Source: Plantactinospora alkalitolerans (lineage in GTDB: Bacteria; Actinomycetota; Actinomycetes; Mycobacteriales; Micromonosporaceae). From it: a stretch of DNA of 64,000 nucleotides. Positions 32,561-52,139 of the stretch are shown piece by piece. A program made the translations under genes and the position numbers. Under the pieces are notes generated by a model. That model had not been told where the DNA came from and ran no database searches. It saw only the letters and a program-made list of their open reading frames with translations. The stretch is from the NCBI RefSeq assembly GCF_015690345.1, contig NZ_JADPUN010000145.1, positions 22,187 to 86,186 of the forward strand, written 5' to 3'. How positions within the stretch are numbered: the first letter of the stretch is position 1; each line of letters begins with the position of its first letter.

Positions 32561-33865
32561 ATGCGACTTGCACCGCAACCTTCTTCGGTCGCCACCCCCG
32601 TGCCCGGTGCGCGGGTGCCGGCCCAACGCACGATCGTCGGGCCCGGCGCCGTCGCCGCCGTACCGGCGGAGGCCGAGGCGATCACCGGCGTTCCGGCGGC
32701 GCAACTCCGCGCCGTCCTCGTCGTCGGCCCGGGATTCGACACCCGGTCCTGGGCCGAGCGGATGGTCGCCGCGCTGCGACCGCTGCCGATCCGGCGGTAC
32801 GTCCACCCGGGCCCGGCAACCCCCGACGGCGTGTTGCGACTGGCACGGCTGCTCCGCGGAAGCCGCCCCGAGATCGTGCTGGCGGTCGGCGGTGGCACCG
32901 TGCTCGACACCGTGAAGGCGGCGGTGGCGCTACAGCCGTACCCCGACCTCGACGAGCGCGACGTGGCGCGGGGGTGCGACGACCCCGAACTGCGGCGGCG
33001 CTGGCCGGTCGACGCTCCCGCCCGACCGGCGGTGGTCGCGGTGCCCAGCACCCCGGGCACCGGAGCCGAGGCCACCCCGTTCGCCACCCTCTGGGACACC
33101 GCCGCCGGCCGGAAGCTCTCCCTGGCCGGTCCCGAGCTGCTGCCCCGGACCGTGATCCTCGATCCGGACCTGCTCGTGGGGCTGGACCGGACCGTCCTCG
33201 CCTGCGCCGTGCTGGACACGATCTGCCAGGGCGCCGAGGCAGCCTGGTCGATCCGCTCCACCCCGGCGTCGACCGCCTTCGGCCTGAGCGCACTCGGCGC
33301 CGCCGCCGGTGTGCTGGACCGGCTCGTCGCCGGACGACTCGACGACGCCGGGCGAGAAGCCCTGCTCCTCGCCGGCCACCACTCCGGCAGGGCCATCGCC
33401 GAGGCACCGACCTCGTCCTGTCACGCCATCTCGTACCCGCTGACCCTGTGGTTGGGGCTGGCGCACGGGCACGCGTGCGGGGTGAGCCTGCCGAGGTTGC
33501 TGCGTCACAACGCGGATGTGACCACGGCGGACTGTGCGGACCCGCGGGGTGTCCGGCACGTCCGGGCGGTGGTCGACCGGATCGCCATGGCCCTGGGCGC
33601 CGACGTGGCGGCATCCGGGCCGGACGGAGCAGGCGGGCCGGACGGAGCAGGCGCCGCACGGGCCGCTGCCGCCGCCGCACGGGTCGAACGGCTGCTCGTC
33701 GGAGCCGGTCTGACGCCCCTGGAAGGGCTACCCGTCGACGCGCACGACCTGGCCGTCGAGGCCCTCAACTACCCCCGATGCCACGACAATCCGCGCCGGC
33801 TGGACGTCCCCGTCCTCAGCCGGCTCCTCGGCACTCCGCTGGGACTGGAGGAGTCATGCTCGTAG
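32561..33865 (+). CDS. phpC: Phosphonoacetaldehyde reductase (iron-type alcohol dehydrogenase, PhpC-like)
   Basis: The 434-residue protein is a group III alcohol dehydrogenase. It has the nucleotide-binding region VLAVGGGTVLDTVKAA, the STPGTGAEAT loop and metal-site residues in VLDTICQGAEAAWS, SSCHAISYPLT and GHACGVSLPRLL. In phosphinothricin biosynthesis PhpC reduces phosphonoacetaldehyde to 2-hydroxyethylphosphonate with NAD(P)H, and the context here (decarboxylase, HEP dioxygenase) is the same. ATG 32561 follows a run of six G. It is the first gene of the operon and overlaps the next by ten bases. A Gly/Ala-rich insert near residue 350 is unusual. Confidence 0.85.
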   Translation: MRLAPQPSSVATPVPGARVPAQRTIVGPGAVAAVPAEAEAITGVPAAQLRAVLVVGPGFDTRSWAERMVAALRPLPIRRYVHPGPATPDGVLRLARLLRGSRPEIVLAVGGGTVLDTVKAAVALQPYPDLDERDVARGCDDPELRRRWPVDAPARPAVVAVPSTPGTGAEATPFATLWDTAAGRKLSLAGPELLPRTVILDPDLLVGLDRTVLACAVLDTICQGAEAAWSIRSTPASTAFGLSALGAAAGVLDRLVAGRLDDAGREALLLAGHHSGRAIAEAPTSSCHAISYPLTLWLGLAHGHACGVSLPRLLRHNADVTTADCADPRGVRHVRAVVDRIAMALGADVAASGPDGAGGPDGAGAARAAAAAARVERLLVGAGLTPLEGLPVDAHDLAVEALNYPRCHDNPRRLDVPVLSRLLGTPLGLEESCS

Positions 33866-35196
33866 ACCCGTTCAAGGTCGCGCACTGGATGAACGCCCGC
33901 AAGCACACCGCGACGCAGGTCGCCGAACTCGCCGGGGTGCCCGGGGAAGAGTTGACCGGCCTGCTCGGCGGCGGCATCGCCGAGGTCGACGACGCGCTGC
34001 TGGGCCGCATCGCGCTCGCACTGCGCGTCGATCCGGCCCAACTCTGTGCCCAGGGCGCCCGGGACCTGACCGTCGTACACCAGACGGCGGACGCGCTCGC
34101 CGCCACCTGCCGGCCGATCCAGCGCGACGGAATCCACTTCTACAACTACTACTCGATGGCGGCGCCGCCCGGCCGGGTGGCGCCGGTCATCCTCGACATC
34201 CTCTGCCCGGCCGACCGGCTGCCCGCGCTCAACAACGGGCACCTGGAACCGGCCATCACGGTCAACCTCGGCCCGGGAGACATCCACGGCCGGTGGGGAC
34301 CGGAACTCACCCCGCAGACCTGGCAGGTGTTGCACGCCAACCCCGGCGACGACCCGTGGATCGTCGGCGACTCGTACGTCGAACCGTCGTACTGCCCGCA
34401 CAGCTACTCGCTCGCCGGTGCCGCGCCGGCCCGGATCGTCTCCTACACCGGACAGTCGAACATGGCGCCGGTGATCGAGGAGGCGAACGCGTGGTCGGAC
34501 AGCGCCTATGCCCGGTACCTCGAACTGCTCGACGGCGGGCTCTCCCCGGGAGACCTGCTGGACCTGCTGCTGGCCCGGCGCGGCTACCAACGGTCCTCCG
34601 CCGCCGAGGCGATCGGCGTCGACCCGGCGGCGCTGGACAAGGCGGTCAGCGACCCGGTGGCCGGGATCCCCGTGCTCCGGGCCCTGGCCCGGACGGTGGG
34701 ACTGGACTACCGCCTGCTGCTGCCGGCCGAGCGGAGCCACGACGCGGTCGGCAAGTCGTACCGGGACGTGCCGGACGCCCGCGCCTCGCGCCGCCGGCTC
34801 GGCCCGTACGAGGTGGCCTCGATGGCGAGCGCCCCGCACCTGCCGGACCTCACCGGGCTCTACCTGCGGGTCGACCCGGACGCCGCCGAGCTGCCCGGTG
34901 CCGACCTGGTGGAGCCGGCCGAGTCGCACTACCTCGTCGCCGGCGGCGAACTCACCCTCGACTGGGACGACGCGCAGGGGCAGCGCCAGAGCACCACCCT
35001 CTCCGCCGACGGCTCGGCCTGGGTCGGCCCGTTCGTCCGGCACCGCTGGTCCGGTGACGGGGCACTGCTGAAGTTCGGCTCCGGCTCCCACGTCGGCTAT
35101 CTCGACCTGGTCGAACTGACCAACACGTACGCACCGGCGGCGACCGCCCGACGAGGCCGCCGCGACCTGTCCAGCTGGGGATACGACGAGGGATAG
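33856..35196 (+). CDS. phpD: 2-Hydroxyethylphosphonate dioxygenase (PhpD-like)
   Basis: The 446-residue protein has the length and bi-domain HTH/cupin arrangement of HEPD, a non-haem iron enzyme that splits 2-hydroxyethylphosphonate into hydroxymethylphosphonate and formate. The iron triad is visible: His in NNGHLEPAITVNLG and Glu plus His in DSYVEPSYCPHSYSL. Glu at the second ligand position matches HEPD, whereas methylphosphonate synthase has Gln, so methylphosphonate is less likely. A second cupin half lies near residues 315-410. The ATG at 33856 lies within the end of phpC. The enzyme commits the pathway to one-carbon phosphonates. Confidence 0.9.
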   Translation: MLVDPFKVAHWMNARKHTATQVAELAGVPGEELTGLLGGGIAEVDDALLGRIALALRVDPAQLCAQGARDLTVVHQTADALAATCRPIQRDGIHFYNYYSMAAPPGRVAPVILDILCPADRLPALNNGHLEPAITVNLGPGDIHGRWGPELTPQTWQVLHANPGDDPWIVGDSYVEPSYCPHSYSLAGAAPARIVSYTGQSNMAPVIEEANAWSDSAYARYLELLDGGLSPGDLLDLLLARRGYQRSSAAEAIGVDPAALDKAVSDPVAGIPVLRALARTVGLDYRLLLPAERSHDAVGKSYRDVPDARASRRRLGPYEVASMASAPHLPDLTGLYLRVDPDAAELPGADLVEPAESHYLVAGGELTLDWDDAQGQRQSTTLSADGSAWVGPFVRHRWSGDGALLKFGSGSHVGYLDLVELTNTYAPAATARRGRRDLSSWGYDEG

Positions 35197-35205
35197 GTGG
35201 CAACG

Positions 35206-36270
35206 ATGCGAGTGGTCTACACCGACCCGGCCTGGGCGCTCGACGCCAGCGGCCGACCCGATCCGAACCGCGCCGACCTGGAACGCGGCATCCTCGGACC
35301 GGACGTCGACGTCGAGATCGGCCCGTTCCACAGCGGAGCCGACCTCGACCCGACCGGCGACCCGGAGGTCGCCCCGAACGCCGACAGCGGCTTCGTGACC
35401 TCCGGCGACCAGTTGCTCGACGCGGCCCGGGGCGCCGACGCACTGGTCATCTACCGGTGCCAGGTCACCTCGGAACTCGTCGAGGCACTCCGGCCGAGCT
35501 GCCGGGTGGTCGCCCGCAGCGGCGTCGGCTTCGACAACCTCCGTCCCGACCTGCTCGCCACCGCCGGCATCTACGGATTCAACGTGCCGGACTACTGCGG
35601 CGACGAGGTGAGCACCCACACCGTGGCGCTGCTGCTCGGACTGGAGCGGCAGATCTGCGTACAGGACCGGCTGGTCCGGGACAACCGGTGGGGAATCCAC
35701 CGGGGCGGCATACCGCGCCGCACCTGCGAACGTACGGTCGGGATCGTCGGCTTCGGCCGGATCGGCCGGGCCAGCGCCCGCAAGCTCCAGCCGTTCTACC
35801 ACCACGTCCTGGCCCACGATCCGTACGTGGCGGCCGACCTGATGGCCAGCCACGGCGTCACACCGGTCCGGAGCCTCGGCGAGTTGTTCGCCGCGGCGGA
35901 CGCCGTGGTGGTCCACGCGGCGCTGACCCCGGAAACGGACGGGCTGATCGGTGCGGCGGCACTCGGGGCCGCCGCACCGGGAACCCTGCTGGTCAACACG
36001 GCCCGGGGCAAACTCGTCGACACCACCGCCGTGCTCGACGCACTCGACACGGGTCAACTGGCCGGCTTCGCCTCCGACGTCTTCGCGCCCGAGGACCCGA
36101 ACGCATCACCCACCGCCCGCAAGTTGCTCGCCCGGAACGACGTGATCGTCAGCTCCCATCGCGCGTTCCTGTCCGCCGAATCCGAGTTGAGCCTGCGCCG
36201 CCGTATCGCCGCGGGCATCCGTGCGGTGCTCGTCGACGACGCACCGCCGCCCGAGGGACGGCTGGCGTGA
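35206..36270 (+). CDS. phpE: Hydroxymethylphosphonate dehydrogenase (PhpE-like, D-2-hydroxyacid dehydrogenase family)
   Basis: The 354-residue protein belongs to the D-isomer-specific 2-hydroxyacid dehydrogenases. It has the Rossmann motif VGIVGFGRIGRAS, substrate-side ARSGVGFDN, and the Arg-Glu-His catalytic set in NTARGKLVD, FAPEDPN and SSHRAFLS. PhpE is known to oxidise hydroxymethylphosphonate towards phosphonoformate in the phosphinothricin pathway, and the neighbours require the same reaction. ATG 35206 has AGGTGG five bases upstream; GTG 35197, directly after the phpD stop, is an alternative start. Confidence 0.83.
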   Translation: MRVVYTDPAWALDASGRPDPNRADLERGILGPDVDVEIGPFHSGADLDPTGDPEVAPNADSGFVTSGDQLLDAARGADALVIYRCQVTSELVEALRPSCRVVARSGVGFDNLRPDLLATAGIYGFNVPDYCGDEVSTHTVALLLGLERQICVQDRLVRDNRWGIHRGGIPRRTCERTVGIVGFGRIGRASARKLQPFYHHVLAHDPYVAADLMASHGVTPVRSLGELFAAADAVVVHAALTPETDGLIGAAALGAAAPGTLLVNTARGKLVDTTAVLDALDTGQLAGFASDVFAPEDPNASPTARKLLARNDVIVSSHRAFLSAESELSLRRRIAAGIRAVLVDDAPPPEGRLA

Positions 36271-36319
36271 ACACCAACGGCCGCCACCGCAGCCAGCTCG
36301 CCACTTCTTTGGAGGAACG

Positions 36320-37288
36320 TTGACCACATCGGAAGAAACCGGTCCGGGCCCGACCACGGGCCAGCGCCCCAGCAGCATGTCGCCGGGCGACCAGCTCCGC
36401 CGCCTGCTCGTCGACGACACGCCCTGCGTCCTGATGGGCGTGCACGACGGGCTCAGCGCCCGGATCGCGGTCGAGGAGGGATTCCGCGCCCTCTGGGCGT
36501 CCGGACTCTGCATCTCCACCGCCCTCGGCGTACGCGACAGCGACGAGGCGTCCTGGACACAACTGCTGAACAGCGTCGAGAGCATGGTGGACAACACCCG
36601 GGTACCGGTGCTCGTCGACGGTGACACCGGGCACGGCAACTTCAACACCGCGCGCCGGTTCGCCAGCCGGGCCGAACGGATCGGTGCCGCCGGAGTCTGC
36701 TTCGAGGACAAGACCTTCCCCAAGATGAACTCCTTCTTCGGGGTGGGGCACGAACTGGTGCCGATCGCCGAGTTCTGCGGAAAGATCAAGGCCTGCAAGG
36801 ACGGGCAGCAGGACCCGGGCTTCGTCGTCGTCGCCCGCACCGAGGCGTTCATCGCCGGCCAGCCCGTCGAGGAGGCGGTGGCCAGGGCCGAGGCGTACGC
36901 GGCCGCCGGCGCCGACGCCATCTTCGTGCACTCCCGGCAACCGACGGCGGTGGAGATCGCCGCCTTCTCGGCCCGATGGCATGGCCGGGTGCCGATCGTG
37001 ATCGCACCGACGACGTACCACCGGACCACGCTGGACGAGTTCCGGCAGATCGGGGTCGGCGGGGTCATCTGGGCGAACCAGAGCATGCGGGCCGCGTTCA
37101 GCGCGATGCGCAAGGCCTGCCGCGACATGCGGTCGAGCGGGGTGATCAGCGGCGTCGAGGAGGAGATCGCCTCGCTCAAGGAGGTCTTCGCACTGCTGGG
37201 CTACGAGGACCTGGAGCGGGAGGAGCGGCGGTACGCCTCCTTCGACCCGCCGGTGCTGTCCACGGTGACCGGGGGGAACGCTCCATGA
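36320..37288 (+). CDS. ppm: Phosphoenolpyruvate phosphonomutase
   Basis: PEP mutase makes the first C-P bond, rearranging phosphoenolpyruvate to phosphonopyruvate. It is the gatekeeper of almost all phosphonate pathways. The diagnostic EDKxxxxxNS motif reads EDKTFPKMNS, and the Mg site VDGDTGHGN and LWASGLCIS also match. I start it at TTG 36320 because a strong GGAGGAACG lies directly upstream; an in-frame ATG lies at residue 20. That gives 322 residues, with a flexible 20-residue head before the usual mutase start. It overlaps the decarboxylase gene by four bases, which pulls the unfavourable equilibrium forward. Confidence 0.95.
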   Translation: MTTSEETGPGPTTGQRPSSMSPGDQLRRLLVDDTPCVLMGVHDGLSARIAVEEGFRALWASGLCISTALGVRDSDEASWTQLLNSVESMVDNTRVPVLVDGDTGHGNFNTARRFASRAERIGAAGVCFEDKTFPKMNSFFGVGHELVPIAEFCGKIKACKDGQQDPGFVVVARTEAFIAGQPVEEAVARAEAYAAAGADAIFVHSRQPTAVEIAAFSARWHGRVPIVIAPTTYHRTTLDEFRQIGVGGVIWANQSMRAAFSAMRKACRDMRSSGVISGVEEEIASLKEVFALLGYEDLEREERRYASFDPPVLSTVTGGNAP

Positions 37289-38469
37289 TCCGTGCCGAAG
37301 AGCTGATGGGAGCCCTGGTCGACCACTCGGTCACCATGGTGACCGGGGTGCCGTGCTCCTTCCTCACCCCGGTCATCAACCGGGCCATCAGCGATCCGAG
37401 GGTGCGCTACCTCGCCGCCACCCAGGAGGGCGAGGCGGCGGCGATCGCGGCCGGTGCCTGGCTGGGTGGCGGGCTCGGCTGTGTCATCAGTCAGAACTCC
37501 GGTCTCGGCAACATGGTCAACCCGCTGACCTCGCTGCTGCACCCGGCCAACATCCCGGCGCTGCTGCTGGTCACCTGGCGGGGTGAACCCGGCCGCCCCG
37601 ACGAGCCGCAGCACGCTCAGATGGGGCGGATCACGCCGGGGCTGCTCGACCTGATGGAGGTGCCGCACGCGACGCTGCCGGCCGACCCGGCCGAGCTGTC
37701 CGACGCGTTCGCGGTGGCCACCGGCGAGCTGCTCCGGGCCGAGCGGCCGTACGCCTTCGTGATTCCGAAGGGGACGGTCGCGGCGGAGCCACTCTGCGAG
37801 TCCGCGCTGCCCCGACGTACCGGCCGGGTCGTCCGGCACCTGCCCGACGGTCCGGCACCCAGCCGGTGGGCGGCGCTCGAGTGCCTGCTGTCCGAGTTGC
37901 CGGAGAGTGCCGCCGTCGTGGCGACCACCGGGATGACCAGTCGGGAACTGTACGAGATCGCCGACCGCGACCAGCACTTCTACCTGGTCGGCGCGATGGG
38001 TTCGGCCGGAGCGGTGGGGCTCGGGGTGGCCGCGCACACCACCCGGCCGGTGGTGGTGGTCGACGGCGACGGCGCCCTGCTGATGCGGCTCGGTGGCCTC
38101 GCCACGATCGGGGCGTACGGGGGTGACAACCTCGTGCACGTCGTGCTGGACAACGGCGTGCACGACTCGACCGGGGGACAGCGCACGCTCTCGTCCACCG
38201 TGGACCTGGTCGCCGCCGCCGCCTCCTGCGGCTACCGGCAACTGCACGACTGCACCCGGCCCGAGGCGTTCCGGGTGGCGCTCGGGGCGGCGCTGGCCGG
38301 GCCCGGGCCGAGCCTGGTCCGGCTCCGCACCAGGCCGGGATCCCGCAGTGGGCTGGGCCGTCCGGCGGTGACCCCGGCGGAGGTGGCCCGGCGGTTCCGG
38401 CGGTTCGTCACCGCCGCCCCCGCCCCGGACAGGGTGGGCGCGGACGAAGTGCTGGGGGTCGGGGCGTGA
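37285..38469 (+). CDS. ppd: Phosphonopyruvate decarboxylase
   Basis: This 394-residue thiamine-diphosphate enzyme removes CO2 from phosphonopyruvate to give phosphonoacetaldehyde, the irreversible step after PEP mutase. Visible features are the Glu-bearing ATQEGEAAAIAAGAWLGG, the QNSGLGNMVNPLTSL loop typical of Ppd, the TPP/Mg motif VVDGDGALLMRLGGL and the following LDNGVHDSTGGQ. ATG 37285 overlaps the mutase stop (ATGA), and the stop overlaps the next GTG by four bases. The C-terminus has an Ala/Pro-rich extension. Confidence 0.94.
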   Translation: MIRAEELMGALVDHSVTMVTGVPCSFLTPVINRAISDPRVRYLAATQEGEAAAIAAGAWLGGGLGCVISQNSGLGNMVNPLTSLLHPANIPALLLVTWRGEPGRPDEPQHAQMGRITPGLLDLMEVPHATLPADPAELSDAFAVATGELLRAERPYAFVIPKGTVAAEPLCESALPRRTGRVVRHLPDGPAPSRWAALECLLSELPESAAVVATTGMTSRELYEIADRDQHFYLVGAMGSAGAVGLGVAAHTTRPVVVVDGDGALLMRLGGLATIGAYGGDNLVHVVLDNGVHDSTGGQRTLSSTVDLVAAAASCGYRQLHDCTRPEAFRVALGAALAGPGPSLVRLRTRPGSRSGLGRPAVTPAEVARRFRRFVTAAPAPDRVGADEVLGVGA

Positions 38470-39221
38470 CCGGTATCCGGGTGACCTTCGCCGGCTCGGG
38501 CGACGCGTTCGGCAGCGGCGGGCGGCTGCAGACCTGCGTACACCTGAGTCCGGCGGACGGCCCGCCGGTGCTGCTCGACTGTGGAGCGACCGCCCTGATC
38601 GGGCTGAAGCGGCACGGTATCGAGCCGAACGACGTCGGCACCGTGGTCCTGTCACACCTGCACGGCGACCACTTCGCCGGACTGCCGTACCTGATCCTCG
38701 ACGGTCAGTTCCGGCGGCGGACCGCGCCGCTGGAGGTGATCGGGCCGCCGGGCACCCAGGAGCGGCTGCGTCAGGCCATGGAGTTGCTCTTTCCCGGCTC
38801 GACCCGGATCACCCGGCGCTTCGAGGTGACGGTCCGCGAGATCGAGCCGCACGGCCGGCTCGATCTCGCGGAGCTGACGGTGCAGGCGTACCCGGCGGAG
38901 CACTTCGCCGGTGCGCCCGCGCTCTGCCTGCGGATCGGGCTCGCCGGTCGGGTCATCGCCTACAGCGGCGACACCGCCTGGACCGAGACCCTGGTCACCG
39001 TGGCCGACGGGGCGGATCTGTTCGTCTGCGAGGCGTACACGGTCACCCGGGCGGTGCCGTTCCACCTGCACCTGCCGATGCTCCGGGACAACCTTCCCCG
39101 GCTCACCTGCCGGCGGATCGTCCTCACCCACGCCGGGCCCGACGTCCTCGCCAGCGCCGGCTCGCTCGACCTCGAACCGCACCTCGAACTGGCCGACGAC
39201 GATCTCGTTCTCGACGTCTAG
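38466..39221 (+). CDS. Metallo-beta-lactamase-fold hydrolase
   Basis: The 251-residue protein has the MBL metal motif SHLHGDHFAG, a later histidine in YPAEHFAG and the metal-bridging Asp in YSGDTAW. It ends with the TCRRIVLTHAGPD histidine. The closest general resemblance is to RNase Z/PhnP-like phosphodiesterases and other small MBL hydrolases. It is embedded between ppd and phpF with a four-base overlap, so it must matter to the pathway. Hydrolysis of a phosphonate ester or nucleotidyl-phosphonate, or repair of a dead-end product, are options. I do not know a counterpart with assigned function in phosphinothricin clusters. Confidence 0.75.
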   Translation: MTGIRVTFAGSGDAFGSGGRLQTCVHLSPADGPPVLLDCGATALIGLKRHGIEPNDVGTVVLSHLHGDHFAGLPYLILDGQFRRRTAPLEVIGPPGTQERLRQAMELLFPGSTRITRRFEVTVREIEPHGRLDLAELTVQAYPAEHFAGAPALCLRIGLAGRVIAYSGDTAWTETLVTVADGADLFVCEAYTVTRAVPFHLHLPMLRDNLPRLTCRRIVLTHAGPDVLASAGSLDLEPHLELADDDLVLDV

Positions 39222-44726: not shown

Positions 44727-45965
44727 GTGGACCTGTTCGAGAAGGTCATCAACAGTCCGGGCAGCCCGATCGCGCAGATGTCGCGGGACATCCACGGCAG
44801 GTACGCCTTTCCGAGGCTGACCGGCGAGATCGGCAGCCGGATGCGGTACGGCGACACGGACCAGCTCGTCTGGAGCCTGAACAACTATCTCGGGCTGGCC
44901 AACCACCCGGAGGTCCGGGCCGCCGACGCGCGGTTCACCGCCCGGTACGGCCTGGCGGCGCCGATGGGCTCGCGGATGATGTCCGGCGAGACCGAGGACC
45001 TGGAGATGCTGGAGTCGGAGCTGGCGGCGTACGCGGGCAAGCCCGACGCGCTGTTCCTGAACTTCGGCTACCAGGGGATGATCTCGTTGCTGGACTCGCT
45101 GCTCAGCCGGCGGGACTGGCTGGTCTACGACGCGGAGTGCCACGCCTGCATCATCGACGGCATCCGGCTGCACCGGGGCAAGGCAAAATCCTTCCCGCAC
45201 AACAACATCGAGCGACTCGAAGCGGTACTGACCCGGATCGAGGCGGAGCGCGGCGACGACGAGGCGGTGCTGGTCGTCACCGAGGGCGTCTTCGGGATGT
45301 CCGGCGTACAGGGGCGGCTGCGGGACATCGTCGCACTCAAGCAGCGGTTCAACTTCCGGCTCCTGGTCGACGACGCGCACGGCTTCGGGGTACTCGGTCC
45401 CGACGGTGGCGGGACCGGGGAGGAGCAGGGCTGCCAGGACGGCATCGACCTGTACTTCGGAACCTTCGCCAAGGCCGGTGCCAGCATCGGCGCCTTCGTC
45501 GCCTCGGACGCCGAGATCATCTGGCGGCTGCGGTACGGGATGCGGTCGCAGATCTTCTCCAAGGGACTGCCGTGGCCGGTCGTTGCCGGTAACCGGGTCC
45601 GGCTCGACATGATGCGCAACCGCCCCGAGCTGCGGCGCAAGTGCCTGGAGATCGCCGCGCACCTGCGGGAGGACCTGCGCGGGGTCGGGCTCGAGATCGG
45701 TGATCCGTCCAGTGCGGTGACCCCGGTGTTCCTCGGACTGGAGGCCGCGAAGACCGCCGTCTTCCTGGAGCGGCTCCGGCACCAGTACGGGATCTTCTGC
45801 TCTGCCGTCACCTATCCGGTGGTGCCTCCGGGGGTGGTCCAGCTCCGGCTGATCGCCACCGCCACGCACGAGCACAGCGACGTCACGTACACCGTGGACG
45901 CGCTGCGCCGGGTGTACGAGGAGGTGACCGGACGGAGCGAGATGGCGCTGTCCGCGCTCCGGTGA
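44727..45965 (+). CDS. Alpha-oxoamine synthase (AONS/KBL/SPT family)
   Basis: The 412-residue PLP enzyme resembles 8-amino-7-oxononanoate synthase and serine palmitoyltransferase: WSLNNYLGLANHPEV, GSRMMSGETEDLEMLE, LLVDDAHGFGVLGPDG and the Schiff-base lysine in FGTFAKAGASIGAF. These enzymes condense an amino acid with an acyl-CoA (or acyl-ACP), losing CO2. The start is GTG 44727 behind GGGGAGG, and it overlaps the aminotransferase by four bases. No biotin genes are near, so a pathway-specific C-C bond-forming role is likely, for example lengthening an amino acid derived from phosphinopyruvate. I know of no characterised phosphinate pathway with such an enzyme. Confidence 0.85.
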   Translation: MDLFEKVINSPGSPIAQMSRDIHGRYAFPRLTGEIGSRMRYGDTDQLVWSLNNYLGLANHPEVRAADARFTARYGLAAPMGSRMMSGETEDLEMLESELAAYAGKPDALFLNFGYQGMISLLDSLLSRRDWLVYDAECHACIIDGIRLHRGKAKSFPHNNIERLEAVLTRIEAERGDDEAVLVVTEGVFGMSGVQGRLRDIVALKQRFNFRLLVDDAHGFGVLGPDGGGTGEEQGCQDGIDLYFGTFAKAGASIGAFVASDAEIIWRLRYGMRSQIFSKGLPWPVVAGNRVRLDMMRNRPELRRKCLEIAAHLREDLRGVGLEIGDPSSAVTPVFLGLEAAKTAVFLERLRHQYGIFCSAVTYPVVPPGVVQLRLIATATHEHSDVTYTVDALRRVYEEVTGRSEMALSALR

Positions 45966-47422
45966 GCACCGACCTGGCCCGGAGCACCGAGCCGGCCGGC
46001 GGCACCGGACTGACGCGTCGACCGGGTAGCGCCCCGGCGGCGGAGATCCTGGCCCGGGCGTCGGCGATCGCCGCCGAGCCGATGCGACGGATCGCACCCG
46101 AGCGGCTGGAGGCGGAGCTGGCCGAGTTCCGGCGTCGTACGCCCGGTTCGGCGGCACTGTTCCAGCGGGCCCAGGGGGTGCTGGCCCGGGGGAGCGAGCA
46201 CGTGGATCCGCTCTCCTCGCCGTACCCGCTGTTCCTGGACCACGGCACCGGCGGCGTGGTCGTCGATGTCGACGGCAACCGGTACGTCGACTGCATCCTG
46301 GCCGGTGGCGCGCTCAGCCTGGGGCACAACCATCCCGGGCTCAACGCGGCGGTCGTCGACCTGCTTCGGGACCGCACCGGTTTCCACGGCCACCTCGACG
46401 AGTTCGAGGTGCTCGCCGCAGAACGGATCATCGAGGTCTTTCCGGCGGCCGAGGCGGTCCGGTTCGTGGGCTCCGGCGCCGAGGCCGACCTCGCGGCGGC
46501 CCGGATCGCGCGGGCGTACACCGGGCGACGGAAGATCATCAAGTTCCGGGGGCACTACCACGGCTGGGGAGACCAGTTCATGGTGGACCTGGAGGTGCCG
46601 GGGTCCGGCGACTTCATGGCCGGCGGGGTACCACCGGAGCACTACGCGCACACCGTGCTGGTGCACCCGCACCGGCTGGACGAGTTGGCGGCGGCGCTGG
46701 CCGCCGGTGACGTCGCGGCGGTGATCAGCGAACCGTTCGGCGGCGAGTCCGGCCTGGTGCCGTTCGCCGACGACTTCCACCAACAGGCCATCGCGCTGGC
46801 TCACCAGCACGGTGCGCTGTACGTGTTCGACGAGGTCGTCACCGGCACCCGGGCCGGAATCGGCGGCGCGCACGCGGTGCTGGGCATCCGCCCGGACCTG
46901 ATCACTCTCGGCAAGGGACTGATGAACGGCTACCCGTCCTGCGGGGCGGTCGCCGGGCGGCGGGAGATCATCGAGGCGGCCGGGACCGGACTGCCGGACG
47001 GACGGCCGTTCACCTACATCGGCGGCACCATGTCCGGCAACGTGCTGTCGGCGGCGGCCTGCTACCACACCCTCGGCGAACTGACCCGGCCCGGCGTTCT
47101 CGACGGTGCCATCGCGGTCACCGCCGACCTGGTGGTCCGGCTCAACGCGCTGTTCTCCGCCGGTGGCGTGCCGTTCTTCGCATACCACTTCGGCACGATC
47201 CTGCGGATCGAACTGACCGCGCCGCACGCGCTGCTCGTTGAGGCCGAGCGGCTGCCGGAGATCATCGCCCGTCGGGCGCTGCTCGCCGACTACATGATTC
47301 CGGTGGTCAACGCCGGGGTGCTGTCCCGGATGGGCCGGGACATGCTCTCCTGCGGGCACACCCGGGCCGACAGCGACCGGGTGGTGAACGCGTATGGCCG
47401 ACTCGTCGAACTCCTCGGCTGA
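45962..47422 (+). CDS. Class III aminotransferase (glutamate-1-semialdehyde aminomutase-like)
   Basis: The 486-residue PLP enzyme shows VDVDGNRYVDCILAGGALS, LGHNHPGLNAAV, FVGSGAEADLAAARIAR, FRGHYHGWGDQ, VFDEVVTGTRAG and the PLP lysine in ITLGKGLMNGYPS. It belongs to the HemL-like/omega-transaminase group. In the cluster it could aminate phosphinopyruvate to a phosphinoalanine-type amino acid or work on the oxoamine product. GTG 45962 overlaps the upstream stop by four bases. The first 65 residues are an extension without homology. It is not closely related to the aminotransferase at 17494. Confidence 0.85.
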   Translation: MSTDLARSTEPAGGTGLTRRPGSAPAAEILARASAIAAEPMRRIAPERLEAELAEFRRRTPGSAALFQRAQGVLARGSEHVDPLSSPYPLFLDHGTGGVVVDVDGNRYVDCILAGGALSLGHNHPGLNAAVVDLLRDRTGFHGHLDEFEVLAAERIIEVFPAAEAVRFVGSGAEADLAAARIARAYTGRRKIIKFRGHYHGWGDQFMVDLEVPGSGDFMAGGVPPEHYAHTVLVHPHRLDELAAALAAGDVAAVISEPFGGESGLVPFADDFHQQAIALAHQHGALYVFDEVVTGTRAGIGGAHAVLGIRPDLITLGKGLMNGYPSCGAVAGRREIIEAAGTGLPDGRPFTYIGGTMSGNVLSAAACYHTLGELTRPGVLDGAIAVTADLVVRLNALFSAGGVPFFAYHFGTILRIELTAPHALLVEAERLPEIIARRALLADYMIPVVNAGVLSRMGRDMLSCGHTRADSDRVVNAYGRLVELLG

Positions 47423-48287
47423 ACCGGTCTCCGGTGCTCCGGCCGAACCGGTCTCCGCGGCCTCGGGCGGGCCGTCGACCGGCGCCCGGCCGGCCGGGAC
47501 GGTCCTGGTCACCGGGGCAACCTCGGGGATCGGGCTCGCCGTCGCCCGGCTCTTCGTCGAGCGGGGGATGCGGGTGCTGGGCACCTCCCGGAATCCCGAC
47601 GACATCCCGTCGGCGGACCGGGTCCCCGGCGTGACCTACCTGGCCCTGGACCAGTCGGATCCGGCGAGCGTACAGGCGTGCGCGAAGGCGGCCGGTCCGG
47701 TCGACGTACTGGTGAACAACGCCGGGCACAGCCAGGGCGGCGCCCTGGAGGACCTGCCGGAGGAGCATCTGGAGCAGTTGTTCCGGATCAACGTGCTGGG
47801 ACCGGTCGCGCTGACCCGGGCGGTACTGCCGGCGATGCGGGCCGCCGGGCACGGCCGGCTGATCTTCGTGGGTTCCATGATGGCCGAGTTCCCGGTGCCG
47901 TTCCAGGGCAGTTACGCGGCCTCGAAACTGGCCCTGCGCGGCTTCGTCACGGCGCTGCGCACCGAGGTCCAGCCGTTCGGCATCCAGGCCACCCTGGTCC
48001 AGCCGGCCTACTTCCGGTCGGCCATCGACCGGCACCGCGCCTGGCACACGACGCCGGACTCGCCGTACCGGGACCGGTTGGGCGTGGTCAGCGCCCGGGT
48101 CCGGGCCCAGCACCAGAACGCGGCGGACCCGACGGAGGTGGCCGAGCGGATCTGGCGGCTGAGCCGGGCCGACCGGTTGCCGGTGGTGTCCATGATCGGC
48201 GGCAACGGCGGCACCCTGCGGTTCGTCCGGCGCTTCCTGCCGGACCGCGTCGCCGAGCGGCTGGTCGCCCGCCGGTACGGCCTCTGA
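47394..48287 (+). CDS. Short-chain dehydrogenase/reductase
   Basis: The 297-residue classical SDR has the cofactor motif TGATSGIGLAVARLF, VLVNNAGHSQGG, the catalytic Ser in FVGSMMAEFP and the YAASK pair. It would reduce a ketone or oxidise an alcohol; after an alpha-oxoamine synthase, reduction of the beta-keto group to an amino alcohol is the classic step, as 3-ketosphinganine reductase does. ATG 47394 lies 29 bases inside the end of the aminotransferase gene. The first 35 residues are a Ser/Ala/Glu-rich extension. Confidence 0.82.
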   Translation: MADSSNSSAEPVSGAPAEPVSAASGGPSTGARPAGTVLVTGATSGIGLAVARLFVERGMRVLGTSRNPDDIPSADRVPGVTYLALDQSDPASVQACAKAAGPVDVLVNNAGHSQGGALEDLPEEHLEQLFRINVLGPVALTRAVLPAMRAAGHGRLIFVGSMMAEFPVPFQGSYAASKLALRGFVTALRTEVQPFGIQATLVQPAYFRSAIDRHRAWHTTPDSPYRDRLGVVSARVRAQHQNAADPTEVAERIWRLSRADRLPVVSMIGGNGGTLRFVRRFLPDRVAERLVARRYGL

Positions 48288-48381: not shown

Positions 48382-49482
48382 ATGACCCAGACCCTGGACC
48401 GGTCCGCCGTACCGGACAGCACGCCCAGCGCACTGTCGGTGATCGACACGGACGTGCACGAGATGATCGGCAACCCGCTGGAGTTCCTCCAGTACGTCGA
48501 GGAGCCCTGGCGGGGGCGGATCCACCCGGACAACTGGATGGGCATCTCCATCCCGTACTCCTGGCCCACCACCGGCGGGCTCGCCCGACCGGACGCCCGA
48601 CCGTCCAACGGGTTCCGGGCCGGCTCCGACTACCAGTTGATGCGATCACAGCACCTCGACGCATTCAACATCAAGCACGCCGTACTGACCGGACTGCTCT
48701 ATCCGAGCGAGTTCAAGGTGCAGCCGGACTTCGCGGTCGGGCTCTCCCAGGCGTACAACCGGTGGCTCGTCAACGAGTGGCTGGCCAAGGATCCCCGCTT
48801 CCTCGGCTCGATCTGCGTGGCGGCGCAACGTCCGGACGACGCGGTGGCCGAGATCGAGAAGTGGGCCTCGCATCCCCAGATGGTGCAGGTCCTGCTTCCG
48901 GTGATCTCGCACGACACGATGGGCCGGGACTACTACCACCCGATCTACGAGGCGGCGGTCCGGAACAAGCTGGTGGTCGGCTTCCACCAGGGCGCGAACG
49001 TGGAGACCGCCGTCGGCCTGCCCACCTACTTCCTGGAGTGGCACACCGCGATCTCCCAGGCCTGGCAGTGCCAGCTCATCAGCCTGGTCGTCCACGGGGT
49101 CTTCGAGAAGTTCCCCGACCTGCGGGTGGTGATGATCGAGTCCAGTTGGACCTGGCTGCCGCACCTGATGTGGCGCTTCGACCACAACTACCGGAGTCTG
49201 CGCCGGGAGGTTCCGTGGGTGAAGCGGCTGCCCAGCGAGTACATCCGGGACCAGGTCAGGTTCACCACCCAGCCGATGGAGTTCGCGGAGAACCCCGATC
49301 ACCTGTACCAGATGTTTGAGATGGTGGGTAACGACGAGTTCCTGATGTTCTCGTCGGACTACCCGCACTGGGACTTCGACGCCCCGGACCGTTCGCTGCC
49401 GAGTTCCTTCCCACCCGACATCCGGCGGAAGGTGCTGCACGACAACGCGGCGAAATTCTACCAACTCGGGGAGGCGCGATGA
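48382..49482 (+). CDS. Amidohydrolase-2 family metal-dependent hydrolase or decarboxylase
   Basis: The 366-residue TIM-barrel protein belongs to Amidohydro_2 (ACMSD-like). The N-terminal metal motif is VIDTDVHEMIG, later metal or catalytic residues sit in VVGFHQGAN and SSDYPHWDFDA, and the C-terminus has the usual DNAAKFYQL. Members decarboxylate or hydrolyse small acids. It overlaps the Rieske gene by four bases, and such amidohydrolase-Rieske pairs occur elsewhere in actinobacteria without known function. The start is ATG 48382 behind GGAGGAGAACC. In this cluster it may decarboxylate or deprotect a phosphinate intermediate. Confidence 0.78.
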   Translation: MTQTLDRSAVPDSTPSALSVIDTDVHEMIGNPLEFLQYVEEPWRGRIHPDNWMGISIPYSWPTTGGLARPDARPSNGFRAGSDYQLMRSQHLDAFNIKHAVLTGLLYPSEFKVQPDFAVGLSQAYNRWLVNEWLAKDPRFLGSICVAAQRPDDAVAEIEKWASHPQMVQVLLPVISHDTMGRDYYHPIYEAAVRNKLVVGFHQGANVETAVGLPTYFLEWHTAISQAWQCQLISLVVHGVFEKFPDLRVVMIESSWTWLPHLMWRFDHNYRSLRREVPWVKRLPSEYIRDQVRFTTQPMEFAENPDHLYQMFEMVGNDEFLMFSSDYPHWDFDAPDRSLPSSFPPDIRRKVLHDNAAKFYQLGEAR

Positions 49483-49868
49483 GCACGACCGAGCAGACGT
49501 CGACCCGGCGTCGCCAACGCCACGTCGTGTGCGGAGTCGACGAACTGAAGCCCGGAACCACCCGGCTGCACGCGGTCGGGCACCGGCAGATCGTGGTCGG
49601 TCACGTACCCGGACACGGGTACGTGGCGCTGTCGAACTACTGCACGCACCAGGGTGGTCCGCTCTCGGCCGGCTCGTTCGAGGCGATGTGGACGGCGGAG
49701 AAGGTGGGGGAGCGGATCCAGGACCCGGATCGTTGGGTGCTGATCTGCCCGTACCACAACTTCGAGATCGACGCCGCCACCGGCTGCCCGGTGGCCCGGT
49801 TGGGTACCGCCCGTACCGCCACCTACCGGGTGGCGGTCGAAGCCGACGAGATCGTCGTCTACGTCTGA
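49479..49868 (+). CDS. Rieske [2Fe-2S] ferredoxin-like protein
   Basis: The 129-residue protein is a stand-alone Rieske domain. Box 1, NYCTHQGGPLS, gives Cys and His, and box 2, LICPYHNFEID, gives the second pair. The 40-residue spacing between the boxes is longer than usual. It has no oxygenase catalytic domain, so it probably passes electrons to a partner; the co-translated amidohydrolase is the obvious one, although that family is not normally redox-active. A partner elsewhere in the genome is possible. The ATG at 49479 overlaps the upstream stop. Confidence 0.85.
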   Translation: MSTTEQTSTRRRQRHVVCGVDELKPGTTRLHAVGHRQIVVGHVPGHGYVALSNYCTHQGGPLSAGSFEAMWTAEKVGERIQDPDRWVLICPYHNFEIDAATGCPVARLGTARTATYRVAVEADEIVVYV

Positions 49869-49946
49869 GTAGGTGACCACGTCCGGCCCGGCCGCCGACA
49901 GCCGGCAACCCGGGCCGGACGTGTTCCCGCAGGGAGGCAGTCCGAA

Positions 49947-52139
49947 GTGCTCCGCAACCACGGTAGGTTCGTGTCCCGCCATCCGAAGAAGATCCTCGGT
50001 ATCGCCGCACTGCTGCTCGCCGGCGCGGTCTACCTCGGGATGGGCGCGTTCGACGTCCTGCGCAGCGGAGGGTTCGAGGACCCGGCCGCCGAGTCGACCC
50101 GGGCCCGGGAGCTGATCGATTCCGAGTTCGGCGGGCAGACCAACCTCGTCCTGCTGGTCCGGGCGAAGGAGGGAACTGTGGACAGCCCCGCCGTCCGGGC
50201 GGCCGGGGCCGCGCTGACGGCCCGGCTGGCCGGCGAGTCCGGGGTGGAGAACGTCGGCTCGTACTGGCAGGACAACGTGGCGAACCTCCGCTCGGCCGAC
50301 GGCACGATGGCGCTGGTGCTGGGGCACGTCGCCGGGGACGACGAGCAGGTGAGCGACCGTGCCGAGGCGTTACTGGCCCGGTTCCCCGCCGACGAGGGAC
50401 CGGTGACCGTCACTCCCGGTGGTGAGGTGGTGGCCAACCAGGACGTACGCGACGAGGTCAACCGGAGCCTGCTGCTGGCCGAGGCGATCGCCGTACCCGC
50501 GATCCTGCTGCTGCTCGTGCTGGTCTTCGGCAGTGTGATGTCGACGATGGTGCCACTGGCCATCGCGGCCGCCGCCACCGCCGGCACCCTCGCCGAGCTG
50601 TACCTGCTGGGCTCGGTCACCGACGTCTCCGAGTTCGCGATCAACCTGGCCACCGCGCTCGCCCTCGGCCTCAGCGTCGACTACGCCCTGCTGATGGTGA
50701 GCCGGTTCCGGGAACGGCTCGCCGCCGGTGACCCGGTACCGGAGGCGGTGGCGGTGACGATGGGAACGGCGGGCCGGACGATCGTCTTCTCCGCCGCCAC
50801 CGTGGCCGCGGCCCTGGCGGCCCTGCTGGTCTTTCCGCAGTTCTTCCTCCGCTCCTTCGCGTACGCGGGGATCGGCGTGGTGCTGATCGCCGCCGTGACC
50901 GCGCTGGTGGTGACCCCGGCCCTGCTGGCGTTGCTCGGCCACCGGATCAACGGAGGTCGGCTGCCCTGGTCCCGGGACGTCCGTGGAGCCGACTCGCCGT
51001 TCTGGGGCGGCCTGGCTGCCGTCGTGATGCGGCGCCCGCTGCTCACCGCGACGCCGGTGGTCGTGCTGCTGCTGCTCGCCGCCGCGCCACTGTCGGCGGT
51101 GCACTTCGGCAGCCCGGACCAGGGGGCGTTGCCGCAGCGGGTCACCAGCCGACAGGTCGCCGACACCATCCGGGACCACTTCGACGCGAACGTCTGGACC
51201 GCGACCGACATCGTCGTACCCGGGCAGGTCGACCCGGACGACCTCGCCGGGTACGCCGGCCGGCTCGTCGCGCTGCCCGGGGTGGCCGGCGCCATCACCA
51301 GCGTCGGCGCGTTCAGCCGGGACGGCGCCGGCCCTGGGGACCCCGGCCTGGGGCGCCCGGCCGCGCAACGGCTGTCGGTGTTCACCACGGTTCCGCCGAA
51401 GTCCGACGTCGCGCAGAAACTCATCCGGGCGATCCGGGCCGTTCCCGGGCCCGGGAACGCGCCGACCCTGGTCAGCAGCTCCGAGGCGCGGCTGGCGGAC
51501 ACCAAGAAGGCCATCGGCGACCGGCTTCCGCTGGCCGGGCTGCTCGTCGCACTGACCACCTTCGTCGCGCTGTTCCTGTTCACCGGAAGCGTGATCCAGC
51601 CGGTCCGCGCTCTGCTGTTGAACGTACTCAGTCTCTCCGCGACCCTCGGCGTGATGGTCTGGGTGTTCCAGCAGGGACACCTGGCGGACTGGCTCGGCTT
51701 CACCCCGCGCCCGCTGGACACCGCGATGACCGTACTGCTGCTCTGTGTCACCTTCGGGCTGTCGATGGACTACGAGGTCTTCCTGATCAGCCGGATCCAC
51801 GAGTTGCATCTCGCCGGCCACGACACCCGGACGGCGGTGGTCGAGGGCCTGGCCCGGACCGGCCGGATCGTGTCGGCGGCGGCCGCGCTGCTCGCGATCA
51901 GCTTCTTCGCCTTCGGTACCAGTTCGGTGAGCTTCCTCCAGATGTTCGGCCTCGGTACCGGGCTGGCGATCCTGATCGACGCGACCCTGGTACGCGGGGT
52001 GCTGGTGCCGGCCCTGATGCGCGCCTTCGGCCCCCGGATCTGGTACGCGCCCCGGCTGCTGCGCCGGCTGCACGAACGGGTGGAGCTCAGCGAGACCCCC
52101 CGGGACGAGGTGGCCCCGCCGGCCCCGGCAGCTCGGTGA
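49947..52139 (+). CDS. MMPL-family RND exporter
   Basis: The 730-residue protein has the MMPL layout: helix 1 (ILGIAALLLAGAVYLGMGA), a periplasmic loop of about 130 residues, helices 2-6 with LALGLSVDYALLMVSRFRE, a second extracytoplasmic loop and helices 8-12 with TFGLSMDYEVFLISRIHE. Conserved Asp-Tyr pairs in both helices form the proton path. It is the last gene of the cluster, 78 bases after the Rieske gene, and starts at GTG 49947 behind GGGAGG. It is the likely product exporter and, with no modifying resistance gene visible, perhaps the self-protection factor. Confidence 0.85.
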   Translation: MLRNHGRFVSRHPKKILGIAALLLAGAVYLGMGAFDVLRSGGFEDPAAESTRARELIDSEFGGQTNLVLLVRAKEGTVDSPAVRAAGAALTARLAGESGVENVGSYWQDNVANLRSADGTMALVLGHVAGDDEQVSDRAEALLARFPADEGPVTVTPGGEVVANQDVRDEVNRSLLLAEAIAVPAILLLLVLVFGSVMSTMVPLAIAAAATAGTLAELYLLGSVTDVSEFAINLATALALGLSVDYALLMVSRFRERLAAGDPVPEAVAVTMGTAGRTIVFSAATVAAALAALLVFPQFFLRSFAYAGIGVVLIAAVTALVVTPALLALLGHRINGGRLPWSRDVRGADSPFWGGLAAVVMRRPLLTATPVVVLLLLAAAPLSAVHFGSPDQGALPQRVTSRQVADTIRDHFDANVWTATDIVVPGQVDPDDLAGYAGRLVALPGVAGAITSVGAFSRDGAGPGDPGLGRPAAQRLSVFTTVPPKSDVAQKLIRAIRAVPGPGNAPTLVSSSEARLADTKKAIGDRLPLAGLLVALTTFVALFLFTGSVIQPVRALLLNVLSLSATLGVMVWVFQQGHLADWLGFTPRPLDTAMTVLLLCVTFGLSMDYEVFLISRIHELHLAGHDTRTAVVEGLARTGRIVSAAAALLAISFFAFGTSSVSFLQMFGLGTGLAILIDATLVRGVLVPALMRAFGPRIWYAPRLLRRLHERVELSETPRDEVAPPAPAAR

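What the first reader, a model, noticed from the sequence alone, without database searches (positions are those of the whole stretch)
32561..52139. Complete early pathway to phosphinopyruvate in a cluster without the phosphinothricin late genes
Seen: PEP mutase (EDKTFPKMNS), Ppd, PhpC-, PhpD-, PhpE-, PhpF-, PhpH- and PhpG-like genes and CPEP phosphonomutase (EDQVVPKRCGH) lie on one strand with four-base overlaps. Known: this is the route to the C-P-C compound phosphinopyruvate in phosphinothricin producers. Inference: because no NRPS, citrate-synthase-like, aconitase-like, B12 radical-SAM P-methylase or N-acetyltransferase gene is present, the product should be a new phosphinate, perhaps still carrying a P-H bond.
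Basis: partly seen in the sequence, partly recalled or inferred. Interest (0 to 1): 0.95.

Follow-up and report, generated by a model that had tools for sequence, protein, structure and literature searches.

The report
Phosphinate cluster with sulfonolipid-type enzyme
An actinobacterium carries the early genes of the herbicide antibiotic phosphinothricin, but where the herbicide's late genes would follow it has an enzyme gene of the sulfonolipid type, so it would likely make an unknown, predicted lipid-like compound with carbon-phosphorus and probably phosphorus-hydrogen bonds.

Summary
Seventeen + strand ORFs (32561-52139) include the phosphinothricin early set: PhpC, PhpD/HEPD, PhpE, PepM, Ppd, PhpF, PhpG, PhpH, CPEP mutase, plus an aldehyde dehydrogenase shared with the PTT cluster. 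PepM, Ppd, PhpG and CPEP mutase pass curated cut-offs; the order matches Streptomyces viridochromogenes DSM 40736. That strain's PhpK, HMGL-like synthase, aconitase, NRPS-type pieces and PAT find nothing in the window; PhpK and PAT have no above-cut-off match in the draft genome.

New: the gene after the aldehyde dehydrogenase is an alpha-oxoamine synthase (AOS) closest to SulA, the cysteate acyl-ACP transferase of sulfonolipid synthesis (51% identity, diagnostic Lys281 kept). AOS relatives share contigs with PhpG in other actinobacteria; of 16 PhpG loci 5 have the AOS, 4 have PhpK, none both. In three, an aminotransferase, a KDSR-like SDR, an amidohydrolase-related oxygenase and its Rieske ferredoxin follow. 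Best reading (inferred): phosphinopyruvate is aminated to phosphinoalanine, a monoanionic cysteate mimic, and condensed with an acyl thioester to a P-H phosphinate analogue of capnine. No chemistry was tested, and one AOS relative sits without any P-C gene.

The parts
28824..29582 (+). TetR-family regulator, probably part of the cluster
   Evidence: Pfam TetR_N; 64% identical gene at the A. spadix cluster
29380..31005 (+). MFS transporter (true start uncertain, ORF from first start)
   Evidence: Pfam MFS_1; 53% identical gene at the A. spadix cluster
31039..32403 (-). Nramp/MntH-type metal transporter
   Evidence: NF001923 451.6 bits, cut-off 430; 54% identical, also divergent, in A. spadix; not found in the held DNA of the loci without the oxygenase
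32561..33865 (+). PhpC-like Fe-alcohol dehydrogenase
   Evidence: Pfam Fe-ADH; 54% to S. viridochromogenes locus
33856..35196 (+). PhpD, 2-hydroxyethylphosphonate dioxygenase
   Evidence: 626 bits to 3g7d PhpD
35197..36270 (+). PhpE-like D-2-hydroxyacid dehydrogenase
   Evidence: Pfam 2-Hacid_dh_C; 67% to S. viridochromogenes locus
36377..37288 (+). PEP mutase (EDKTFPKMNS)
   Evidence: TIGR02320 337.0 over cut-off 319.55
37285..38469 (+). Ppd, phosphonopyruvate decarboxylase
   Evidence: TIGR03297 398.1 over cut-off 312.5
38466..39221 (+). MBL-fold hydrolase, role unknown
   Evidence: Pfam Lactamase_B_2; 51-52% relatives at the A. spadix and MAG AC_30 clusters
39239..39787 (+). PhpF-like nucleotidyltransferase
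   Evidence: TIGR00125 domain 30.4 over cut-off 27.7; 76% to S. viridochromogenes locus
39768..41171 (+). PhpG, CMP-5'-phosphonoformate--3-phosphoglycerate phosphonoformyl transferase (start uncertain)
   Evidence: NF038358 686.3 over cut-off 545
41174..42361 (+). PhpH, enolase-like
   Evidence: Pfam Enolase_C; 60% to S. viridochromogenes locus
42377..43297 (+). CPEP phosphonomutase (EDQVVPKRCGH)
   Evidence: TIGR02319 556.6 over cut-off 420.05; 81% to S. viridochromogenes locus
43302..44702 (+). Aldehyde dehydrogenase, likely for phosphonoformaldehyde
   Evidence: PhnAcAld_DH-like 461.8 bits, below its cut-off; 69% to the gene in the same place in S. viridochromogenes
44727..45965 (+). SulA-type alpha-oxoamine synthase (AOS)
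   Evidence: 430 bits to 7u7h and 412 to 28eh, against 198 to SPT; predicted model nearest 7u7h; Lys249 and Lys279
45962..47422 (+). Class III aminotransferase (GSAM / D-phenylglycine aminotransferase-like)
   Evidence: Pfam Aminotran_3; 203 bits to 2cy8
47394..48287 (+). SDR, 3-ketodihydrosphingosine-reductase-like
   Evidence: NF049977 152.3 bits, below cut-off 400; general SDR models score higher (best 197.6)
48382..49482 (+). Amidohydrolase-related dinuclear oxygenase (ARO), by relatedness
   Evidence: 322, 320, 281, 243 bits to 8sm7, 8sm8, 8sm9, 8sm6
49479..49868 (+). Rieske ferredoxin, likely electron donor of the ARO
   Evidence: Pfam Rieske; CTH and CPYH motif
49947..52139 (+). MMPL-family exporter
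   Evidence: Pfam MMPL; in the window and G003 only of 16 loci

Best explanation
The cluster carries homologues of the whole phosphinothricin-type route to phosphinopyruvate followed by a SulA-type alpha-oxoamine synthase, which would likely condense the predicted amino acid phosphinoalanine with an acyl thioester into a predicted P-H phosphinate analogue of the sulfonolipid base capnine. Route, with steps 1 and 2 known from the PTT pathway (partly recalled) and here shown only as genes: (1) PepM, Ppd, PhpC, PhpD, PhpE and ALDH take PEP to phosphonoformate; (2) PhpF makes CMP-phosphonoformate, PhpG moves it to phosphoglycerate, PhpH dehydrates to CPEP, and CPEP mutase joins P to the pyruvyl carbon with loss of CO2, leaving phosphinopyruvate with a P-H bond. 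Inferred: (3) phosphinopyruvate, an oxaloacetate mimic, is transaminated to phosphinoalanine, by the class III aminotransferase or a housekeeping enzyme; (4) the AOS joins it to an acyl-ACP or acyl-CoA with loss of CO2, giving a 2-amino-3-oxoalkyl H-phosphinate; (5) the SDR reduces the ketone; (6) the ARO with its Rieske ferredoxin hydroxylates a C-H bond; (7) the MMPL or MFS protein exports the product. With no PhpK the P-H bond should stay.
For: Early genes over curated cut-offs and syntenic with the PTT producer. AOS: best solved relatives are 7u7h (SulA) and 28eh, cysteate-C-fatty acyltransferase (430 and 412 bits; SPT 198); the model's four best Foldseek chains are all 7u7h at 50-51% identity, SPT 30%. 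The Lys281 that separates SulA from SPT (PMC9304779 passages) is kept: Lys in 21 of 21 rows on PhpG contigs, window included. AOS and PhpG rows share the longest-contig length in 20 of 120 AOS rows, all among the first 66 and 0 of the last 54, a border I set by eye; shifting lengths by four offsets gave 1, 0, 0, 0. Of 16 PhpG loci, 5 have the AOS, 4 have PhpK with HMGL-like synthase and aconitase, none both. In 354 genomes of the window's family PhpG occurs in 3 (E 1e-140) and the AOS in 2 (E 1e-135), both PhpG carriers; the third PhpG genome has PhpK. In A. spadix a FabF-type ketosynthase follows the Rieske gene, fitting acyl-ACP. H-phosphinates carry a single charge and are used by PLP enzymes with the P-H intact (PMC9814759 passages); SulA takes cysteate but not serine or phosphoserine; a transaminase for phosphonopyruvate exists (PMC11867202 passages).
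Against: No product or enzyme activity is known. I saw no test of phosphinoalanine on any SulA. The AOS clade is not confined to P-C clusters: in a class sample of 394 genomes the only AOS besides the window's own is in G948 (65%; contig length that of Nocardiopsis gilva), with no other cluster gene in 28 kb; and 22 of 40 AOS rows of the first 66 with contigs of 15 kb or more had no match among the 120 listed PhpG rows of 542, though four of the 22 match an ARO row and one is A. spadix. Amycolatopsis loci have the AOS without the aminotransferase, SDR or ARO above threshold in about 61 kb held (a 29% class III aminotransferase lies far upstream in one), so those steps are not obligatory. SDR, ALDH and aminotransferase are below the cut-off of every model shown. 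Pfam finds no N-acyltransferase or ACP among the 17 ORFs. No alignment column separates PhpG-linked AOS from SulA-side rows at my thresholds.
Confidence: 0.58

Rival explanations
1. The AOS works on phosphinoalanine but with a short acyl group (acetyl-, malonyl- or other CoA), giving a small amino-ketone or amino-alcohol phosphinate, a water-soluble antimetabolite rather than a lipid.
For: The AOS superfamily holds KBL and ALAS, which use short acyl-CoA (listed; their substrates recalled). Known phosphinates are small antimetabolites. MFS exporter present.
Against: The closest relatives by sequence and model are SulA and CFAT, which use long-chain acyl thioesters; MMPL exporter in the window and FabF-type ketosynthase in A. 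spadix.
Confidence: 0.2
2. The AOS uses L-phosphonoalanine, made by transamination of phosphonopyruvate, so the lipid is a phosphonate, and the phosphinate branch feeds another product.
For: Phosphonopyruvate is made by the same cluster and its transamination to phosphonoalanine is known (PMC11867202 passages).
Against: Ppd would drain phosphonopyruvate; in all 5 AOS loci the AOS follows CPEP mutase and ALDH; phosphonoalanine is dianionic, unlike cysteate.
Confidence: 0.07
3. The AOS module makes a sulfonolipid or another sphingoid base from cysteate or serine and only sits beside a phosphinate cluster.
For: SulA itself uses cysteate; an AOS relative exists without P-C genes; no residue difference from SulA-side rows was found.
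Against: AOS rows share contigs with PhpG rows, the AOS lies on the same strand right after ALDH in all 5 loci, and no locus has both AOS and PhpK. A cysteate synthase was not searched for.
Confidence: 0.08
4. The cluster makes a phosphinothricin-type peptide with late genes elsewhere in the genome.
For: Early genes are the same as in PTT.
Against: No PhpK or PAT over cut-off and no close HMGL-like synthase (30%, 65 bits) in the genome; the genome is a 441-contig draft, 96% complete, so a gap is not excluded.
Confidence: 0.03
5. The CPEP mutase step does not run: the end product is a phosphonate such as phosphonoformate or its nucleotide.
For: CMP-phosphonoformate is a known intermediate (PMC12288639 passages); no enzyme was tested here.
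Against: CPEP mutase passes its equivalog cut-off and is 63-90% identical in the 12 loci outside G003 where tblastn finds it.
Confidence: 0.04

Closest known systems
Phosphinothricin tripeptide cluster, S. viridochromogenes DSM 40736 (and phosalacine, Kitasatospora phosalacinea)
   Same: Same order PhpC, D, E, PepM, Ppd, PhpF, G, H, CPEP mutase, ALDH at 54-81% identity
   Different: No PhpK, HMGL-like synthase, aconitase, NRPS-type piece or PAT in the window; AOS module instead; an extra MBL gene
SulA / CFAT, cysteate acyltransferase of sulfonolipid synthesis (7u7h, 28eh)
   Same: About 51% identity, same fold, PLP lysine and Lys281 kept
   Different: Found in an actinobacterial phosphinate cluster; amino acid substrate predicted to be phosphinoalanine, not cysteate
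3-ketocapnine / 3-ketosphinganine reductases
   Same: A reductase acts after the AOS in the capnine route (PMC11211663 passages); here an SDR gene lies two genes after the AOS
   Different: Below the KdsR equivalog cut-off (152 of 400 bits); not compared with 3-ketocapnine reductase sequences
Amidohydrolase-related dinuclear oxygenases (AibH2, SfbO, PtmU3)
   Same: 221-322 bits to 6m1w and 8sm6-8sm9; six candidate metal ligands kept; Rieske partner next door
   Different: SfbO's sulfate-binding Arg232 and Arg235 align with His221 and Ile224; substrate unknown
Phosphonoalamide route (PnaA transaminase)
   Same: Precedent for transaminating a P-C oxaloacetate mimic
   Different: PnaA is of the aspartate aminotransferase type; the window has a class III enzyme and a phosphinate precursor

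Membership tests
Phosphinothricin-type early pathway (to phosphinopyruvate) | PepM, Ppd, PhpG and CPEP mutase equivalogs | tested here: met
   All four over NCBIfam cut-offs
Phosphinothricin-type early pathway (to phosphinopyruvate) | PhpC, PhpD, PhpE, PhpF, PhpH in syntenic order | tested here: met
   54-76% identity, same order as L007; PhpD 626 bits to 3g7d
Phosphinothricin-type early pathway (to phosphinopyruvate) | CPEP mutase activity | not testable with these tools
   Needs an assay
Phosphinothricin/phosalacine clusters | PhpK P-methylase | tested here: not met
   Draft genome best 92.6 bits, cut-off 600; no window hit
Phosphinothricin/phosalacine clusters | HMGL-like synthase and aconitase-like isomerase in the cluster | tested here: not met
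   No window hit; genome best for the synthase 30%, 65 bits; the aconitase was not searched genome-wide
Phosphinothricin/phosalacine clusters | NRPS in the cluster and PAT self-resistance | tested here: not met
   L007 NRPS-type ORFs no window hit; PAT none over cut-off in the draft genome; NRPS outside the window not searched
SulA/CFAT (sulfonolipid AOS) | Closest to SulA/CFAT rather than SPT, KBL, BioF, ALAS | tested here: met
   430/412 bits against 198 and less; Foldseek ranks 1-4; VIA-align Z alone is close, 49.9 against 48.2
SulA/CFAT (sulfonolipid AOS) | Lys281 in place of SPT's Ala; Asn53, His140, Lys251, Arg376 | tested here: met
   N52, H139, K249, K279, R374 invariant in 32 rows, placed by the alignment
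SulA/CFAT (sulfonolipid AOS) | Uses cysteate and acyl-ACP | not testable with these tools
   Genomic setting points to another amino acid
Amidohydrolase-related dinuclear oxygenase | Small Rieske ferredoxin next door (CxH, CxxH) | tested here: met
   CTH and CPYH in 49479-49868, 4-base overlap
Amidohydrolase-related dinuclear oxygenase | Three His and three carboxylate metal ligands | tested here: inconclusive
   D24, H26, H202, E253, D326, H329 kept in 21 of 21 rows and the five PDB sequences; assignment as ligands is mine, from conservation

The most novel reading that the evidence does not exclude
Actinobacteria make a natural H-phosphinate sphingoid: a phosphorus isostere of capnine built by a SulA-type condensing enzyme on phosphinoalanine, then oxidised by a Mn/Fe amidohydrolase-type oxygenase fed by its own Mn transporter. 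It would be the first phosphinate lipid and a new branch from phosphinopyruvate, shared by several actinobacterial lineages.
Probability: 0.45. Interest if true: 0.95.

Novelty: new variant of a known kind. Interest (0 to 1): 0.86.

Why it matters
A 2026 review states that phosphinothricin and its peptides are the only known natural products with a C-P-C bond (PMC13302981, passages); I recall P-H phosphinates only as intermediates on that route. This cluster keeps the costly ten-gene start but ends it in a different way, and the same AOS ending is read directly in two Plantactinospora-type genomes, Actinoallomurus and two Amycolatopsis, with further contigs by length match. If the reading is right it adds a second class of phosphinates, links C-P chemistry to sphingoid-type condensing enzymes, and offers a testable substrate for an amidohydrolase-type oxygenase. 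It also turns the question what SulA-like enzymes do in actinobacteria into a simple in vitro assay.

Tried and rejected

Counts and dropped rows: of 17 loci found by the one genome-contig scan (two peptide patterns, so not exhaustive), four archaeal apgM-like ones (L019, L021-L023) were left out of the matrix; with the window, G003 and G747 it has 16 rows, and held DNA differs from 7.8 to 64 kb, so an absence means absence from that DNA. The contig-length comparison uses the 120 listed rows of each search (of 542 PhpG and 7999 AOS hits). Gene calls are from a GC-by-codon-position score, not a gene finder. The names of G003, G747 and G948 rest on equal contig lengths.
Full report
What was checked. 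The window is contig 419 (22187-86186) of a 9.2 Mb draft genome in 441 contigs, 96% complete. The nearest named PhpG relatives are from Plantactinospora. All genes lie on the + strand from 32561 to 52139, with no internal stops. PepM, Ppd, PhpG and CPEP mutase pass curated equivalog cut-offs; PhpD scores 626 bits against solved PhpD; the others have the right families and sit in the same order as in the PTT producer S. viridochromogenes DSM 40736 at 54-76% identity. The names PhpC, E, F and H are recalled and rest on that synteny. The aldehyde dehydrogenase after CPEP mutase is also in the PTT locus (69%), so I count it with the early set, probably for phosphonoformaldehyde.

What is missing. 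I took S. viridochromogenes and K. phosalacinea loci from the genome scan. The PTT locus has a PhpK family protein (TIGR04479, 737 bits), an HMGL-like synthase, an aconitase, AMP-binding/PP-binding pieces and phosphinothricin N-acetyltransferase (NF040502, 387 bits). None of these ORFs finds a match in the window by tblastn at E 1e-4. In the draft genome PhpK reaches 92.6 bits of a 600 cut-off, PAT 121.3 of 300, and the HMGL-like synthase of G747 finds only a 30% match.

What stands in their place. The gene at 44727-45965 is an alpha-oxoamine synthase. Its best solved relatives are 7u7h (430 bits) and 28eh, named cysteate-C-fatty acyltransferase (412 bits); SPT follows at 198. The predicted model (mean pLDDT 87.4) has 7u7h, the A. 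finegoldii SulA, in Foldseek ranks 1-4 at 50-51% identity, SPT at 30%; by VIA-align Z the two are close, 49.9 and 48.2. SulA makes 3-ketocapnine from cysteate and acyl-ACP, refuses serine and phosphoserine, and differs from SPT by Lys281, which the authors propose as a marker (PMC9304779, passages). In the window the PLP lysine is residue 249 and a lysine lies 30 residues on at 279, as in SulA (251 and 281). That lysine is kept in 21 of 21 rows on PhpG contigs, 38 of 46 other rows of the first 66 (8 have Arg, among them mycobacterial ones), and 54 of 54 of the last 54; one of the latter, P0195, scores 615 bits to 28eh.

Linkage beyond this genome. PhpG is rare: over its cut-off in 2 of 7 genomes of the genus, 3 of 354 of the family and 1 of 396 in a phylum sample, the window's own. 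Twenty of the 120 listed AOS relatives share the exact longest-contig length with a listed PhpG relative; all 20 are among the first 66 rows, none among the other 54 (a border set by eye); shifted lengths gave 1, 0, 0, 0 matches. Direct reading of loci agrees: G003 has all 17 genes in the same order; Actinoallomurus spadix has PhpD, PhpE, PepM, PhpF, PhpG, PhpH, CPEP mutase, ALDH, AOS, aminotransferase, SDR, oxygenase and Rieske in order, with Ppd, a Fe-ADH and the MBL gene further off; two Amycolatopsis loci have CPEP mutase, ALDH, AOS in a row. Across 16 PhpG loci, the AOS is in 5, PhpK with the HMGL-like synthase and aconitase in 4, none has both; an Isosphaeraceae MAG has the HMGL-like synthase alone, and three Nonomuraea loci and a MAG with the full early set have neither. 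In the window's family the AOS is in 2 of 354 genomes, both of them PhpG carriers; the third PhpG carrier, G747, has PhpK (69% to S. viridochromogenes).

The accessory genes. The class III aminotransferase resembles D-phenylglycine aminotransferase and glutamate-1-semialdehyde aminomutase. The SDR's nearest sphingolipid model is KdsR, 152 of 400 bits. The amidohydrolase at 48382 scores 322, 320, 281 and 243 bits against 8sm7, 8sm8, 8sm9 and 8sm6, the amidohydrolase-related dinuclear oxygenases found by their neighbouring Rieske ferredoxins (PMC10811679, parts 1 and 2 of 3 read). Here the Rieske gene overlaps it by four bases and has CTH and CPYH. Six residues, D24, H26, H202, E253, D326 and H329, are kept in 21 of 21 relatives and in the five PDB sequences; three His and three carboxylates are what the paper reports for the dinuclear site. 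SfbO acts on 2-aminoethylsulfonate-type compounds and its Mn/Fe site responds to 2-aminoethylphosphonate, a useful precedent; but SfbO's sulfate-binding arginines are not kept. ARO relatives of 68% identity or more share contig length with AOS or PhpG rows in 12 of 26 cases (12 of 17 with contigs of 10 kb or more; one of them perhaps the window's own contig), less similar ones in 1 of the 48 typed (0 of 17). An Nramp/MntH-type transporter lies divergently upstream in the window, G003 and A. spadix, the three loci with the oxygenase, and was not found in the held DNA of the other 13.

How it most likely works. Phosphinopyruvate is the P-H mimic of oxaloacetate. Its transamination product, phosphinoalanine, has a singly charged tetrahedral acid on the beta carbon, as cysteate has. 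H-phosphinic groups are handled as carboxylates by PLP enzymes without loss of the P-H bond (PMC9814759, passages), and a phosphonopyruvate transaminase is known (PMC11867202, passages). A SulA-type enzyme placed directly after CPEP mutase and ALDH is therefore best read as condensing phosphinoalanine with an acyl thioester, to an H-phosphinate analogue of 3-ketocapnine; the SDR and ARO would finish it and MMPL or MFS export it. Shown: the genes, their families, the order, the linkage and the exclusion pattern. Inferred: every substrate from phosphinopyruvate on, chain length, the P-H bond and the step order. A FabF-type ketosynthase after the Rieske gene in A. spadix favours a fatty acyl-ACP donor. 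The aminotransferase is missing, above threshold, from the Amycolatopsis loci, so a housekeeping enzyme may do that step.

Results against it. The AOS clade also occurs without P-C genes: in a class sample of 394 genomes the only other AOS, in G948, has no other cluster gene in 28 kb. Of 40 AOS rows with contigs of 15 kb or more, 22 had no match in the PhpG list; four of these match an ARO row and one is A. spadix, which has PhpG, so 22 is an upper figure. No alignment column separates the groups at the thresholds used. The tree does not settle origin. No enzyme or product was tested.

Novelty. The early half is known. The combination with a SulA-type condensing enzyme was not seen in the listings, in a library that lacks most subscription journals. 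A 2026 review still lists phosphinothricin and its peptides as the only natural C-P-C compounds (PMC13302981, passages).

Noticed in passing
window 31039-32403 (-): Nramp/MntH-type Mn transporter found only beside the oxygenase-bearing clusters (3 of 16 loci), perhaps supplying Mn to a Mn/Fe oxygenase.
   Followed up: partly
window 38466-39221: MBL-fold hydrolase (RNase Z / phosphodiesterase-like) inside the operon, with relatives in A. spadix and MAG AC_30 but not found in the held DNA of the PTT-type loci; role unknown.
   Followed up: no
L049-L051 (G747; contig length equal to that of a Solwaraspora row): A PTT-type branch with PhpK (69%), HMGL-like synthase (70%) and aconitase (53%): a likely new phosphinothricin-type producer.
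   Followed up: partly
L009, L010, L011 (Nonomuraea): Complete early core and ALDH but neither PhpK nor AOS; a CGNR protein and an MFS transporter follow in L009, with genes of like size in L010: possibly a third branch.
   Followed up: no
L016 (Isosphaeraceae MAG): Planctomycete locus with PhpE, ALDH, PhpF, PhpG, PhpH, CPEP mutase and the HMGL-like synthase (66%) but no PepM above threshold nearby.
   Followed up: no
L014:19623-20969: FabF-type ketosynthase directly after the Rieske gene in A. spadix.
   Followed up: yes
window 52171-54003 (-) and 54432-56573: Hemopexin-repeat protein, and a beta-lactamase-like protein with polyglycine-hydrolase-type repeats, next to the cluster; relatives of both lie next to it in G003 too (the second cut by the end of the fetched stretch).
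   Followed up: no
window 15354-20090: Set with UbiA prenyltransferase, epimerase and class III aminotransferase on -, and a family 2 glycosyltransferase on +, with a SARP-type regulator at 20895-21701.
   Followed up: no
window 292-2884: Transposase genes (DDE_Tnp_4 and Mutator type) at the left end of the window.
   Followed up: no
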